Assembly (NCBI GenBank): GCA_021734325.1
Contig: JAIPJF010000011.1
Coordinates: 38,218-102,217 of the forward strand
DNA from: Fidelibacterota bacterium
GTDB lineage: Bacteria > Fidelibacterota > UBA8477 > JABMPR01
Direction: 5' to 3'
Length of the DNA: 64,000 nucleotides
Shown: positions 7,216-64,000 of the stretch, piece by piece
Position numbering within the stretch: position 1 is the stretch's first letter
Layout: every line of letters begins with the position of its first letter
Position numbers and translations under genes: made by a program
The notes under the pieces: model-generated
Seen by the model: the letters and a program-made list of their open reading frames with translations, nothing else
The model's database searches: none
Told to the model about the DNA's origin: nothing

Positions 7216-7337
7216 GAACAGGCTCCCAATAATTAGGTGATCTGATCAATTTATCTCCATTTGAACTCGATTGATCTGCAGAAATTAATTGCTAACAACT
7301 CAAATGCCATGCAATTAGTGTCATTACTAAATATTTT

Positions 7338-7349
7338 TATTCATGAATA
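7338..7349. promoter_or_regulatory. Candidate operator upstream of rrf2-cco operon
   Basis: Perfect 12-bp palindrome TATTCATGAATA in AT-rich DNA about 120 bp upstream of the rrf2 start, inside the only long non-coding stretch (7216-7426) before the cbb3 operon. Rrf2 proteins bind short AT-rich palindromes, so autoregulation through this site is possible. No other member of the motif is known in this genome. Confidence 0.3.
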
Positions 7350-7426
7350 TGCATGTTTTGTGCACAGGGTCTGGATCTACACCTTAATTCAGTCTTAACG
7401 ATTGGGGCAGGTAAAGCCTCGTTTGT

Positions 7427-8317
7427 TTATTGAATCAGAGCGACTTCCAAATATTTCACTTCGTAGGCATTGAGCTGATCAAGATCATAGGCAAATTGCC
7501 GGGTTCCATCCGGGTTGTCTAATGTCCTGTCAGGTGGCTGAACAAATTGGACGCTTTGGTCCCCATAAATGATCACAAGGCTCCAATCCGGTATGGCATG
7601 GTTCAAACTGAATTTGTAAGAAAATTTATTCTTATCCACACTGCCTAAAGGTTGATAATTAAATCCAAGATTTAGATCCGTGGTGTCAGTCTGGAAAACG
7701 AGCCATTCGCCATTCTCGTCCTTTACGGTAAGGGGTTGAGTCGTCTTATCACCTGATTTGAGCCAGACCTTTTCAACATTATAGGGAAGTAAGAGCTCAA
7801 ACCGCATTGGTAAAACAGCATTTGGTTTCAAACGTCCATGCATTTCAACTTTAAAACCCTGAAAGGATGAATTGGGTTTTACAATCATTTTAAAAGTTTC
7901 AAAAGGGGTTTTACCCTGATCCTGGTCCTTCAGGGTAAATTGTATGGGAATGGCAATCCACACATCCACCGGCTTGCCATCTCTCAAGGCGGGATTAAAC
8001 AGGGTTCTTTGCACTGCGTTGGCAGCGATTCTGTCAAGCTTCGGTTCCAGCGTCTGTGTTATCCGGGTCTCGGTAACCAGTCCCTCGCTCGAAACACTGG
8101 CATTCACCAACACCGTTCCTTCAATTCCCTTATCGCGAAGTTCCTTTGGATAATAGATATTGGTGCCCAGTTCATCGTAGCCGTTCACCGGTGTCGGTTT
8201 GACAAGGTTAGGTTCAGCAGGCTCACTTTTAAACCATGCGCATTGATTGACAAGACCGATTGCAACAATCAACAATAGTCCCGGAATTATGCTGTTTTTA
8301 TTACGAAAATAATTCAT
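7427..8317 (-). CDS. TonB-family energy transducer-like protein
   Basis: 296-residue protein with one N-terminal hydrophobic segment (residues 9-25) and a TonB C-terminal-type domain (about residues 40-130; typical IYYPKELRDKGIEGTVLV and FNPALRDGKPVDVW stretches). A C-terminal beta-rich half (about 135-296) of unknown family follows. The ATG at 8317 is preferred to the one at 8329, because GAGGAAGG directly abuts the latter but is well spaced for the former. The TonB domain sits in the middle of the protein instead of at the end, which is unusual for a true TonB. It may be a periplasmic adaptor. No ExbB/ExbD genes are nearby. Confidence 0.75.
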   Translation of the reverse strand: MNYFRNKNSIIPGLLLIVAIGLVNQCAWFKSEPAEPNLVKPTPVNGYDELGTNIYYPKELRDKGIEGTVLVNASVSSEGLVTETRITQTLEPKLDRIAANAVQRTLFNPALRDGKPVDVWIAIPIQFTLKDQDQGKTPFETFKMIVKPNSSFQGFKVEMHGRLKPNAVLPMRFELLLPYNVEKVWLKSGDKTTQPLTVKDENGEWLVFQTDTTDLNLGFNYQPLGSVDKNKFSYKFSLNHAIPDWSLVIIYGDQSVQFVQPPDRTLDNPDGTRQFAYDLDQLNAYEVKYLEVALIQ

Positions 8318-60410: not shown

Positions 60411-60749
60411 GGGGTGTAACTGCCCAGAGCAACCTTCCCTGTCCATGTGTCAGGACATAGCAATCCCATACATTGACCAATTACACAATTTTAAATTCGT
60501 GTCTTCCTCGAGTGAACCGAGCAGTTGCGAGGGGAACGACCGCCGCATACTGCGGGGTTCAGGATCCCAGACAAAAGTGGTATAAGGTATGGGGGTGACA
60601 GCCTTAACCGCAGAGAACGCAAAGGGCTCTGGGGGGGCCGAAGCGCCTCGAGCTCTTGTGAGAAGTTAGGTGATAGGCGTTAGAGGATAGATGAAAAGGT
60701 AGTGTGGACAAATTGTCAGATCCTCTTGATTCGTCTCCCTGAGCGGCTT

Positions 60750-60833
60750 GCAGGGACGTAGTCGGACCCCTAACTCCTAACCCCTAACCCCTAACTTGTC
60801 CCGGCGAAGTTCCGCAGGGACGTAGACGGACCC
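60750..60833. repeat. 20-bp direct repeats flanking the CCCCTAA array
   Basis: Bases 60750-60769 and 60814-60833 (GCAGGGACGTAG, then CGGACCC) match at 19 of 20 positions, bracketing the CCCCTAA array. Confidence 0.7.
60767..60794. repeat. Four tandem CCCCTAA 7-mers (telomere-like; TTAGGGG on - strand)
   Basis: Units CCCCTAA, CTCCTAA, CCCCTAA, CCCCTAA. On the minus strand this gives four G-runs spaced by TTA, capable in principle of forming a G-quadruplex. It is flanked by the two 20-bp direct repeats. Confidence 0.7.
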
Positions 60834-60868
60834 AGCAATAATTCACAATTCGCAATTGCTTTATTTCC

Positions 60869-61193: not shown

Positions 61194-63098
61194 ATGAAAA
61201 CAAAAGTCGCTGTAAGAACAGTCATGTTGATTGTTTTACTGATGGTTGCTTTCTCCTGCGAAAATATAACTGAACCAGACGATAATAAGATTAAAATTGA
61301 AGTTGCATTATCAGGCGCCGTACAAAAAGGTCCGTTCCTGAATGGGACCTCAGTACTGATATCCGAACTTGAAGGGAATCTGACACCAACCGGCAGAAAC
61401 TTTTCTTCTCAGATAGAAAACAATGCTGGTATTTTTCAGTTACCCTCAGTTGAATATTCGTCCCAATACGTTGAACTCAAAGCAGACGGATATTACTATA
61501 ATGAGATAAGTGGAAGTGCCTCATCATCTCCGATCACATTATATGCACTCTCTGATATTACCAACCGGGAATCAGTGAATATTAATATGTTTACGACCCT
61601 GGAACGTCCGCGAATTAAGCAACTAATTAATAATGGACTGACCTTTTCCATGGCAAAGGATTCTACCTATAAGGATATTCTGAGAGCCTTCAGTTTTCCG
61701 CTGGACTCGATTATTAATTCCGAAGATTTAAATATCTCTGCCGCTGGAGAAGAAAACGCCAAATTATTAGCTGTTTCACTCATTTTACAAGGGCCTCGAA
61801 CAGAAGCAGAATTGAGTGAACTCATTTCAAATATCTCTTTCGATTTACAAACGGACGGTCAGATCAACAGTTCTTCAATTACCACCGGTCTTTTTCAATC
61901 TGTAAATTCTCTGGATACAACTTCGATACGGGGAAACCTGGAAGCACGGTTTGACGAGCTTGGCATTGATGCCACTATTTCTAATTTTGAGAAATACATT
62001 AACATCCTCATGCAAACTCAGAATGATATTGTTATCGCTTTTGAGCGAGTTATTTCCTGCGATGGTGACTCATCATCGTCAATTGACATTAGTGTACTGG
62101 GTGGTGAACCCCCTTACACATATCAATGGTCAAATGGTGCAACATCGGAAGATATTGAAAACATAGGTCCGGATATTTACTCAGTAATCGTCACTGACGC
62201 TTATAACCAGACAAAGACTTCAGACGATATTATCATTCCGGGCCGGATGGTGTTGACTTCAGAGGTAACTCATGTTGATGATCTACATTCTGAGGGATCC
62301 ATTGACCTAACTGTAACTGGTGGAGAAGCCCCATATACTTATAACTGGTCGAATGGTAGTACCAATGAAGATATTTCGGGACTTGAATTGGGAGTCTATA
62401 CGGTAACTGTGACTGATATTAATAATTGTGAGGAAACAACAACCGTAGAAATCTATGACGCCACTCCTGTAATTGACATTGATGGAAACTTGTATCATGT
62501 AATAAAGATTGGCAATCAATATTGGCTTAAAGAGAACTTAAAGGTGACACATTACCGGAATGGGGATGCGATCCCCAATGTGACCGACTCTACAGAATGG
62601 ACAAATTTAACGACGGGAGCCTATTGTGAATATGATAACAACCCAGCCAATGTAGATACCTACGGCCGGTTGTACAATTGGTATACGGTCGATGACAGCA
62701 GGAATATCGCCCCTGAAGGCTGGCATGTGCCCAGTGATGATGAATGGAAAGCGTTGGAGATGACTCTTGGTATGAGCCAGTCAGAGGCTGACAATACCGG
62801 CTTGCGGGGGACGGACCAGGCCAGCCAACTGGCGGGGAATGCAGACCTTTGGACAGATGGTGATCTTGAGAACAATGCTGTATTCGGGAGCAGCGGTTTT
62901 GCCGCGTTTCCCGGGGGTTACCGCTACGGCAGCAATGGTGGCTTCTACTATATGGGTGGCTACGCCAGCTTCTGGTCGTCTACGGAGGGCAGTAGTAGCT
63001 ACGCCTGGGGCCGGGTATTGCGCTGCAACTATGCCTATGTCGGCCGGTACAGCGGCCATGAGCAATACGGTTTTTCGGTGCGTTTGGTGAGGGATTAG
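61194..63098 (+). CDS. DGR variable protein: surface lipoprotein with SprB repeats and Fib-succ-major (lectin-like) domain
   Basis: 634 residues from the ATG at 61194 (GGAGG eight bases upstream; the TTG at 61161 has no such site). Lipobox AFSCEN (C22). Residues about 41-155: an exported domain starting GAVQKGPFLNGTSV. Residues about 288-325 and 356-400: two SprB repeats (GGEPPYTYQWSNG; GGEAPYTYNWSNG). Residues about 426-634: a Fib-succ-major domain of C-type-lectin type (WLKENLKVTHY, YNWYTVDD, WHVPSDDEW). The last 65 residues (570-634) are encoded by VR, and 26 differ from the TR-encoded version. A displayed binding protein diversified by the retroelement; ligand unknown. Confidence 0.93.
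   Translation: MKTKVAVRTVMLIVLLMVAFSCENITEPDDNKIKIEVALSGAVQKGPFLNGTSVLISELEGNLTPTGRNFSSQIENNAGIFQLPSVEYSSQYVELKADGYYYNEISGSASSSPITLYALSDITNRESVNINMFTTLERPRIKQLINNGLTFSMAKDSTYKDILRAFSFPLDSIINSEDLNISAAGEENAKLLAVSLILQGPRTEAELSELISNISFDLQTDGQINSSSITTGLFQSVNSLDTTSIRGNLEARFDELGIDATISNFEKYINILMQTQNDIVIAFERVISCDGDSSSSIDISVLGGEPPYTYQWSNGATSEDIENIGPDIYSVIVTDAYNQTKTSDDIIIPGRMVLTSEVTHVDDLHSEGSIDLTVTGGEAPYTYNWSNGSTNEDISGLELGVYTVTVTDINNCEETTTVEIYDATPVIDIDGNLYHVIKIGNQYWLKENLKVTHYRNGDAIPNVTDSTEWTNLTTGAYCEYDNNPANVDTYGRLYNWYTVDDSRNIAPEGWHVPSDDEWKALEMTLGMSQSEADNTGLRGTDQASQLAGNADLWTDGDLENNAVFGSSGFAAFPGGYRYGSNGGFYYMGGYASFWSSTEGSSSYAWGRVLRCNYAYVGRYSGHEQYGFSVRLVRD
62899..63096 (+). repeat. DGR variable repeat (VR)
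   Basis: 198 bp at the 3' end of the target gene, ending on the first base of its stop codon. Aligned without gaps to TR (63639-63836). 36 mismatches, all at TR adenines (24 A to G, 10 A to T, 2 A to C); 0 of 132 non-A positions differ. The 30 bp at the 3' end (63067-63096) are identical to TR, as expected for the IMH site where homing starts. Confidence 0.98.
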
Positions 63099-63113
63099 AC
63101 TATTTGACTATTT

Positions 63114-63137
63114 ATCCCGACAATTAATTGTCGGGAT
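63114..63137. promoter_or_regulatory. Perfect 24-bp palindrome downstream of VR (candidate homing cruciform)
   Basis: Arm ATCCCGACAATT at 63114-63125 is the exact reverse complement of the next 12 bases. It begins 17 bp after VR. In the Bordetella phage DGR a hairpin/cruciform just past VR increases target recognition. No U-run follows, so a simple terminator is less likely. The palindrome lies before the avd start. Confidence 0.6.
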
Positions 63138-63154
63138 CGAATTGGGTTGGTCCT

Positions 63155-63508
63155 ATGGCAAAACATGATGAGTTACCGGTATACAAGGCAAGTTATGACT
63201 TGCTGCTTGAGATTTTCCGCTTTACCAAGGAATTCAAGCGGGAGTATAAATATACGGTCGGCGAAAGCCTTAAAAAGGAGATGCTGGAAATGATCACCTA
63301 CCTATACAGGGCCAACAGCAAACACGATAAACAGGAAACGCTGCAGCTGGCTAGAGAGAAAATTGAGGTGATCCGTCTGTTTGTGCGGATGATGAAAGAC
63401 TTGCACCAGATCAGTTTGAAAAGATTCGTTCAGGTAAACAAACAGATCGAGAATGTATCCAGACAATTAACAGGATGGCAAAAATCAAAAAAAGAATTGA
63501 CTGTTTAG
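63155..63508 (+). CDS. avd: DGR accessory variability determinant (Avd)
   Basis: 117 residues, all helix, strongly basic, no Cys. Starts MAKHDELPVYKASYDLLLEI; matches the four-helix-bundle Avd/S23-like family. In known DGRs Avd pentamers bind the RT and TR RNA and are required for homing. The ATG at 63155 is preferred to the TTG at 63128, which would put the palindrome in the coding region. Placed between VR and TR, as in Bordetella phage BPP-1 (mtd-avd-TR-brt). Confidence 0.9.
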   Translation: MAKHDELPVYKASYDLLLEIFRFTKEFKREYKYTVGESLKKEMLEMITYLYRANSKHDKQETLQLAREKIEVIRLFVRMMKDLHQISLKRFVQVNKQIENVSRQLTGWQKSKKELTV

Positions 63509-63514
63509 CCGGAG

Positions 63515-63539
63515 TTGCTTATTGCCAAGGCATAAGCAA
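63515..63539 (+). ncRNA. Hairpin at 5' side of DGR template RNA
   Basis: TTGCTTAT and GCC pair with GGC and ATAAGCAA, with one bulged T, around an AA loop; it starts 7 nt after the avd stop and 100 nt before TR. It is probably part of the structured DGR RNA or ends the avd transcript (inference). Confidence 0.45.
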
Positions 63540-63638
63540 GTGAGCGTATTTAAATCCGGCAGCCTCCTTGTGTTCTTCACGAGGTATCAGTTCATGTTTT
63601 CTGAAAATGAAGATATGATTAATCAAATGGCTGCTTTA

Positions 63639-63836
63639 TTGCCGCGTTTCCCGGGGGTTACCGCAACAACAACAATGGTAACTTCAACAATATGGGTAAC
63701 AACGCCAACTTCTGGTCATCTACGGAGAACAATAGTAACAACGCCTGGAACCGGAAATTGAACTACAACAATGCCAATGTCAACCGGAACAACAACAATA
63801 AGCAAAACGGTTTTTCGGTGCGTTTGGTGAGGGATT
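63639..63836 (+). repeat. DGR template repeat (TR)
   Basis: 198 bp, non-coding template. In the frame of VR it would be 25 Asn codons (AAC/AAT) plus Lys and Tyr; AAC-type codons can mutate at A without creating stops. 66 of 198 bases are A, of which 36 are changed in VR. TR lies between avd and RT. Confidence 0.98.
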
Positions 63837-63851
63837 TATCACAGTCAATCA

Positions 63852-63883
63852 GGGCAGGGCGGTCAATTATGGCCGTCTTGCCC
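63852..63883 (+). terminator. Hairpin with T-run directly before the RT start
   Basis: GGGCAGGGCGG (63852-63862) pairs with CCGTCTTGCCC (63873-63883), two G-U pairs, 10-nt loop, followed by ATTTTT (63885-63890) and then the RT ATG. This looks like an intrinsic terminator or attenuator separating TR from RT. It leaves no room for an SD. Confidence 0.5.
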
Positions 63884-63890
63884 CATTTTT

Positions 63891-64000
63891 ATGCAATTAT
63901 CACTCTTTGAAGAACAAGACCGCGATAAAATTCTAACCGACTTGTTTCAGGCCTATTTTGACGCCCGAAAAAATAAACGAAACACATTAAATGCCCTTGC
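63891..64000 (+). CDS. DGR reverse transcriptase, N-terminus (cut by window edge)
   Basis: 36 codons visible: MQLSLFEEQDRDKILTDLFQ, then the AYFDARKNKRNT segment, a signature of the N-terminal region of DGR/retron-type RTs in the avd-linked group. The catalytic YxDD and the palm lie beyond the window. Position and TR/VR statistics make the assignment strong. RT copies TR RNA with adenine misincorporation. Confidence 0.87.
   Translation, partial: MQLSLFEEQDRDKILTDLFQAYFDARKNKRNTLNAL

What the first reader, a model, noticed from the sequence alone, without database searches (positions are those of the whole stretch)
61194..64000. Complete-looking diversity-generating retroelement with adenine-specific VR/TR differences
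Seen: VR (62899-63096) and TR (63639-63836) align over 198 bp with no gaps. All 36 differences are at TR adenines (24 to G, 10 to T, 2 to C) and 0 of 132 other positions differ. Between and beyond them are an avd gene and the N-terminus of an RT. Known: this is the hallmark of DGRs (mtd-avd-TR-brt order of phage BPP-1). The C-terminal placement of VR, ending at the stop codon, is also canonical. The host-encoded chromosomal setting in an FCB-type genome and the SprB/Fib-succ target appear not to be described for this locus.
Basis: partly seen in the sequence, partly recalled or inferred. Interest (0 to 1): 0.95.

Follow-up and report, generated by a model that had tools for sequence, protein, structure and literature searches.

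The report
Protein-diversifying retroelement with RNA leader
An uncultured bacterium of the Neomarinimicrobiota carries a retroelement, cut off by the end of the contig, that likely keeps rewriting the tip of a predicted cell-surface binding protein by error-prone copying, and directly before its template lies a conserved RNA element, predicted to fold, that likely helps to define what is copied.

Summary
It is a cell-encoded diversity-generating retroelement (DGR) of a Neomarinimicrobiota genome, but not complete: the contig ends 36 codons into the RT, and RVT_1 finds nothing in the 84%-complete assembly. Relatives carry intact RTs. A same-genus genome gives a population-like test: its VR differs from ours at 41 positions, all TR adenines, 0 of 132 others, while the same gene just upstream is 85% identical. 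The cassette is about 98% identical there against 65-84% elsewhere, at a different place, so it probably moved recently. Fib_succ_major lipoprotein targets were already reported. The unexpected part is a structured RNA of 134 nt directly before TR, resembling Rfam RT-7 (below its gathering score), with strong covariation. In 245 genomes of the phylum it was found in six, each time before a TR. My literature searches show no link between the two; key papers were not held.

The parts
61194..63098 (+). DGR target gene, 634 aa; predicted lipoprotein (hydrophobic start ending ...VAFSC, Cys codon 61257-61259), two SprB repeat stretches, C-terminal Fib_succ_major (FISUMP) domain
   Evidence: PF09603 177.9 bits over cut-off 33.9; PF13573 68.3 over 28; TIGR02145 109.6 over 41.65; the lipobox is my reading of the sequence, no signal-peptide program was run
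62502..63092 (+). Fib_succ_major domain; tentatively a C-type-lectin-like fold
62899..63096 (+). variable repeat (VR), last 65-66 codons of the target
   Evidence: cross-genome test; hypervariable columns in homologues
63114..63137 (.). perfect 24-nt palindrome 17 nt after VR (10-bp stem, TTAA loop), candidate retrohoming hairpin/cruciform
   Evidence: (z -4.45)
63155..63508 (+). avd, accessory variability determinant, 117 aa
   Evidence: PF22296 bAvd 56.4 bits (cut-off 40), phrog_3206 'Avd protein of DGR' E 7.7e-25; NF033474 64.4 bits is below its cut-off 80
63508..63641 (+). structured leader RNA directly before TR, RT-7-like; its closing helix (63558-63564 with 63629-63635) ends 3 nt before TR
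   Evidence: RF03028 61.7 bits, E 4.4e-13, below gathering 116.8; own model R1 126.6 bits, to which this sequence contributed; covariation; fold
63639..63836 (+). template repeat (TR), 66 adenines in 198 nt, 25 AAC/AAT codons
63852..63883 (+). 14-bp hairpin followed by a T-run in the 54-nt TR-RT spacer (terminator-like)
   Evidence: (z -4.82)
63891..64000 (+). first 36 codons of the reverse transcriptase gene, cut by the contig end
   Evidence: frame read; 69% identical over 36 aa and 35 aa to the starts of the intact RTs of L034 and L032; contig end; no family library hit for the 36 aa

Best explanation
This is a cell-encoded diversity-generating retroelement, cut off by the contig end inside its reverse-transcriptase gene, in which an adenine-rich template copy is predicted to be reverse-transcribed with errors at adenines and likely pasted over the last 66 codons of a predicted surface-lipoprotein gene. 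Shown by sequence: VR, TR, avd, the RT start, the palindrome after VR, adenine-only differences within this genome, and adenine-only differences between the VRs of two same-genus genomes. Inferred from BPP-1 and from intact relatives: the RT-Avd complex copies TR RNA, mis-incorporates opposite A, and the cDNA replaces VR beside the palindrome while TR stays unchanged; the changed residues would sit on a lectin-like domain, so binding specificity is what varies. Inferred and untested: the template RNA of this subfamily is a compact unit of leader, TR and terminator hairpin; the leader helix that closes 3 nt before TR likely stops the RT at the 5' end of TR and/or docks RT-Avd. Inferred: the cassette moved recently between genomes.
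For: All 36 VR/TR differences at TR adenines (P 1.3e-21). G017, same genus: its VR differs from our TR at 37 positions, all A, and from our VR at 41 positions, all TR-A, 0 of 132 others, although the 422 bp of the same gene just before VR are only 85.1% identical; VR is therefore kept in step with TR except at adenines. In 126 homologues aligned with the window's Fib_succ_major domain, the 36 columns that face TR codons with A at position 1 or 2 have mean entropy 2.67 against 0.69 in the other 29 VR columns and 1.05 in 140 upstream columns (p 4e-10). Intact RTs (YVDD, IGNLTSQ) follow avd and TR in G015, G002 and G057; the G057 contig starts before avd without a target. Of 65 loci scanned, 27 hold an ORF with both RT motifs and 32 (31 distinct) an adenine-biased repeat pair (the pair scan tolerates A mismatches by design, so it is no test of the bias). 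Leader: own model, 36 matches in 64 sources, all on avd's strand; in the 25 rows not used to build it 95.0% of cells pair and 21 of 23 pairs change on both sides, against 35-45% paired when slid (rows fitted to the model). Cassette identity 96.9-100% per segment against 65-84% for the long chromosomal matches.
Confidence: 0.86

Rival explanations
1. A dead or RT-less DGR: the element was active in the past, but in this genome the RT is missing or broken, so VR is frozen (or served in trans).
For: RVT_1 not found in the 37 contigs, though the same search does find the half RT of G017. RT-less relatives exist in assemblies: in L035 (G067) TR turns VR-like in its second half and other genes (restriction/methylase-like by my reading) follow, and in L085 the leader is followed by a VR-like copy with no RT ORF.
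Against: The contig stops inside the RT and the 36 codons are open; the assembly is 84% complete; 132 of 132 non-A positions of VR still match our TR, in G000 and G017 alike. G017 holds an RT C-terminal half at another contig end, though that it belongs to this DGR is not shown.
Confidence: 0.1
2. The leader is not part of the template RNA but a cis-regulator (attenuator or protein-binding leader) that tunes avd or RT expression.
For: It lies between avd and RT, and a terminator-like hairpin precedes RT, an arrangement that could regulate RT.
Against: In L064, L035 and L075 TR lies 538-588 nt beyond the end of avd (in L035 with a 114-aa ORF between them), yet the leader stays directly before TR; in L094 leader and the TR-like sequence after it lie upstream of avd. 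Over 31 distinct loci with a located TR it ends within 10 nt of TR in 22. Position follows TR, not avd.
Confidence: 0.25
3. Assembly or binning artefact: the cassette belongs to another genome and was stitched to this contig.
For: Both G000 and G017 contigs end inside the DGR and the DGR is far more alike than the rest of the two genomes.
Against: The two cassettes are not identical (15 differences over 647 bp), the target gene continues upstream as one open frame, and the first 68 bp of the two target genes are related (79%).
Confidence: 0.06
4. An ordinary diverged gene-segment duplication without targeted mutagenesis.
For: Two similar segments 740 bp apart.
Against: 0 of 132 non-A changes against 36 of 66 A changes.
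Confidence: 0.005

Closest known systems
Bordetella phage BPP-1 DGR (mtd-avd-TR-brt)
   Same: Gene order, avd, adenine-only VR/TR differences, VR at the 3' end of the target, inverted repeat after VR (in phage DGRs stems of 7-10 bp, 4-34 bp after VR: PMC3240598, passages).
   Different: Apparently chromosomal, lipoprotein target, loop TTAA instead of GRNA. In BPP-1 TR RNA is flanked 5' by the avd coding sequence and 3' by a spacer that recruits RT-Avd (PMC12875486, passages); here a structured leader lies between avd and TR and the spacer is a 54-nt hairpin.
Lipoprotein DGR targets: TvpA of Treponema denticola, the Legionella DGR lipoprotein, and a Fib_succ_major/Mfa2 lipoprotein of a human-gut DGR
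   Same: (Predicted) lipoprotein with a diversified domain (PMC4159848 and PMC8867640, passages); TvpA is the best structural match.
   Different: Different stalk (SprB repeats) and host phylum.
Cellular DGRs of FCB and CPR bacteria (survey PMC8144416)
   Same: Host group and cellular encoding (passages). The Avd relatives found here come from Bacteroidota, KSB1, Cloacimonadota, Ignavibacteria and Patescibacteria among others.
   Different: In PMC8144416 the terms 'RNA structure', 'structured RNA' and 'upstream of TR' do not occur (find in main text).
Rfam RF03028, RT-7 RNA
   Same: Match over the whole model in the window, in 10 of 10 and in 3 of 4 further DGR loci, each time directly before TR.
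   Different: Every match seen is below the gathering score (best 114.1 of 116.8, Parabacteroides goldsteinii); no member above it was seen.

Membership tests
Diversity-generating retroelement | Paired TR and VR that differ almost only at TR adenines | tested here: met
   36 of 36 differences at A; 41 of 41 between the VRs of two genomes
Diversity-generating retroelement | Adjacent DGR-type reverse transcriptase with catalytic YxDD | tested here: inconclusive
   Only 36 codons before the contig end, no RVT_1 in the assembly; intact RTs in relatives G015, G002, G057
Diversity-generating retroelement | Accessory Avd protein | tested here: met
   PF22296 over cut-off, phrog_3206; NF033474 below cut-off
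Diversity-generating retroelement | VR at the C-terminal end of a target with a C-type-lectin-like fold | tested here: inconclusive
Diversity-generating retroelement | Inverted repeat shortly after VR | tested here: met
   63114-63137, z -4.45
Diversity-generating retroelement | TR stays constant while VR diversifies in a population | tested here: inconclusive
   Two genomes only: TR 98.1% over the 105 bp held in G017, VR 79.3%; no reads available
Diversity-generating retroelement | Demonstrated retrohoming | not testable with these tools
   needs an experiment
Rfam RT-7 RNA (RF03028) | Score at or above the family's gathering score | tested here: not met
   61.7 against 116.8 bits, so it is called RT-7-like here
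Rfam RT-7 RNA (RF03028) | Shared consensus structure supported by covariation | tested here: met
   Match from model position 1 to 191 with no non-standard pair marked; covariation

The most novel reading that the evidence does not exclude
Cell-encoded DGRs of FCB and CPR bacteria carry a second RNA module: a covarying leader, kin of the Rfam family RT-7, that sits at the 5' edge of the template repeat and sets where error-prone cDNA synthesis stops (or docks RT-Avd), so that leader, TR and terminator hairpin form a self-contained programming RNA that travels between phyla as one cassette.
Probability: 0.45. Interest if true: 0.72.

Novelty: new variant of a known kind. Interest (0 to 1): 0.52.

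Why it matters
The DGR as such is a further member of a known kind. What would matter is the leader: if it defines the 5' end of the copied template, it suggests a function for an Rfam family that the tool shows only as 'RT-7 RNA', tells how cellular DGRs bound their template (no experimental study of this surfaced in the listings), and gives a further handle besides RT and Avd to find DGRs on fragmentary contigs. The near-identical cassettes in two otherwise distant same-genus genomes give a natural experiment on what retrohoming does to a target after transfer.

Tried and rejected
RT sought in the assembly with PF00078: none. Continuation sought by asking for C18 beyond 102,217: the contig ends there. 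Downstream flank sought by using the G017 contig that holds an RT C-terminus: it matches G000 only around C18:37 kb, so it does not continue our locus. More VRs in the genome: a TR-bearing query found only the local VR. Viral carriers: none with the window's Avd, one IMG/VR contig with the Avd alignment (61%); 24 phage records at best 28.8% and 10 plasmid records at best 30.0% Avd identity. A 16-nt leader motif in viral contigs: 19 stretches, none with avd or an RT ORF and no leader match better than E 0.27, so the motif alone is not diagnostic. Leader in seven named phage/plasmid DGR stretches: no significant match in 7 of 7 (best E 4.4); the IMG/VR DGR L158 matches at E 7.6e-5. First structure model from 16 sequences: pLDDT 45.6, discarded. 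PDB by sequence: nothing relevant. Defence-gene library: nothing. Terminator-like sites are not more frequent than in shuffles (3 against 3.7); only the 14-bp stem stands out by length. Rfam at gathering score found no RT-7 in 16 sources. Papers not held: Weinberg 2017 (tried by a DOI from memory), Handa 2025, Handa 2018, Wu 2018, Paul 2017; they may already describe the leader.
Full report
What is there. VR 62899-63096 and TR 63639-63836 align over 198 bp without gaps; all 36 differences lie at TR adenines and none at the 132 other positions. The repeat finder lists the same pair independently. The chance of 36 of 36 on 66 A of 198 is 1.3e-21. TR has 25 AAC/AAT codons, 23 of them changed in VR; two of 65 TR codons could give a stop; 63 of 66 TR adenines are at codon positions 1 and 2.

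The target (61194-63098) starts with a lipoprotein-like signal (my reading), has SprB repeats and ends in a Fib_succ_major domain. Avd (63155-63508) is above the cut-off of Pfam bAvd and below that of NCBIfam's Avd equivalog. The RT is cut: window base 64,000 is the last base of contig C18, and RVT_1 finds nothing in the 37 contigs, which are 84% complete. The same-genus genome G017 breaks inside TR and holds an RT C-terminal half at another contig end; that the two belong together is not shown. Assemblies tend to break at such repeats (general knowledge), which fits a present but unassembled RT.

Host. The G017 contig has the length of the record JAIPJM010000012.1, Candidatus Neomarinimicrobiota, isolate Tobar14m-G35, and avd lies at the same coordinates in both; G017 is of the same genus as the window's genome. 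Of 100 related genomes searched (own included), 6 have an Avd at least 67% identical and 20 have any match. The one genome-collection scan gave 62 loci in Bacteroidota, KSB1, Cloacimonadota, Ignavibacteria, Patescibacteria and others; of the last 20 of them, 18 show neither a located TR/VR pair nor an RT ORF, and many avd pieces there are short.

Activity and transfer. G000 and G017 are distant: long chromosomal matches are 65-84% identical at DNA level (cco block 74%; 69-72% for three genes; ten segments of 65-84%; two further matches of 39 and 31 nt at 90-94% were not counted). The cassette is different: stop-to-avd gap 100% over 58 bp, avd 96.9%, leader 98.5%, TR 98.1% over 105 bp. It lies at another place: I fetched the region on the DGR side of the symporter-like gene for 10 of the 15 other genus members that have the gene, and none has the target or avd there. 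An Avd tree of 34 rows puts G000 and G017 beside a KSB1 sequence (support 93/82, not starred), and a clade of the four same-genus Avds is rejected (AU p 0.008; I chose the group after seeing the identities). So the cassette was probably moved recently. At DNA level the two targets match only in their first 68 bp and in the Fib_succ_major part. Within that part the 422 bp before VR are 85.1% identical, but VR shows 41 differences, all at TR adenines, and 132 of 132 identical elsewhere. This is what repeated overwriting from TR would leave behind. Against G017's own cut TR, its VR shows 20 A changes and 2 others.

The leader RNA. An Rfam scan matched RT-7 (RF03028) at 63508-63641, E 4.4e-13, 61.7 bits against a gathering score of 116.8. 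At the relaxed threshold the same family matches all 10 relatives given and 3 of 4 further ones, the best being Parabacteroides goldsteinii with 114.1 bits (L102 had none). At gathering score none of 16 sources matched RT-7. In 245 genomes of the phylum RT-7 matches 6 at E <= 0.001 (strict filters, which lose weak matches), the same six that have the close Avd, and each match lies directly before a TR. A model of my own from 11 sequences (the RT-7 matches of the window and 9 relatives, plus the avd-TR interval of L065) gives 36 matches at E <= 0.1 in 64 sources, all on the strand of avd (four duplicate contigs were not given), and the same 6 of 245 genomes (4 of the 6 were in its training set). 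Among 31 distinct loci with a located TR the match ends within 10 nt of TR in 22; of the 21 not used for training it does so in 12, one of which is the near-identical G017. Of the other nine, five have a match further upstream (in L080 and L082 the located TR is cut because VR is cut by the contig start, and a TR-like stretch follows the leader directly) and four have none by this model; one of these four, L098, matches RT-7 directly before TR. In the 25 untrained rows 95.0% of cells pair and 21 of 23 pairs change on both sides; the closing helix pairs in 99.3% with changes on both sides in 6 of 6 pairs; sliding the partners drops pairing to 28-45%. The rows are fitted to the model, which favours the structure; over all rows 0 of 500 shuffles reach the observed values. 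In L035, L064 and L075 TR lies 538-588 nt beyond avd and the leader stays with TR. In the window the closing helix ends 3 nt before TR.

The spacer after TR is short: 54 nt with a 14-bp hairpin and T-run. In 12 of 17 loci the 80 nt after the located TR fold with z of -2.4 or lower against single-base shuffles (for some loci the TR end is approximate and start codons were guessed). In BPP-1, by contrast, the spacer recruits RT-Avd and the 5' flank is the avd coding sequence, whose 3' end holds a stop signal for reverse transcription (PMC12875486, passages). I infer that the leader takes over the latter role, perhaps also docking.

Comparison. As a DGR this is a normal member in the features tested, except that the RT, the fold and the behaviour in a population stay inconclusive here. 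The leader and the hairpin spacer make it a variant. No paper connecting RT-7 with DGRs appeared in the listings, but the five papers most likely to mention it are not held. That 'RT-7' was named for proximity to reverse transcriptases is recalled, not from a call.

Noticed in passing
L035 (G067) 7248-7443: TR is adenine-rich in its first half but VR-like in the second, ends in a stop codon, and other genes (restriction/methylase-like by my reading) stand where the RT should be: a recombined or mis-assembled DGR without RT.
   Followed up: partly
L085 8322-8700: A leader match is followed by a VR-like copy (4 AAC/AAT in about 200 nt) instead of a TR, with no RT ORF: a decayed DGR or an assembly chimera.
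   Followed up: partly
L035 6687-7031: Between avd and the leader lies a second small ORF (114 aa) that looks like a four-helix-bundle protein (my reading); L064 and L075 have gaps of similar size whose content I did not examine.
   Followed up: no
L105-L124: 18 of these 20 loci (all but L107 and L119) have avd pieces, many of them short, without a located TR/VR pair or RT ORF: decayed DGRs or contig-end fragments.
   Followed up: no
L067 1344-1402 and 5930-6045: Group II intron RNA matches flank the DGR of a Prolixibacteraceae contig.
   Followed up: no
window 60720-60840: Short repeated stretch (GCAGGGACGTAG.CGGACCC twice, with CCCTAA-like runs) between the symporter-like gene and the DGR target; seen by eye.
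   Followed up: no
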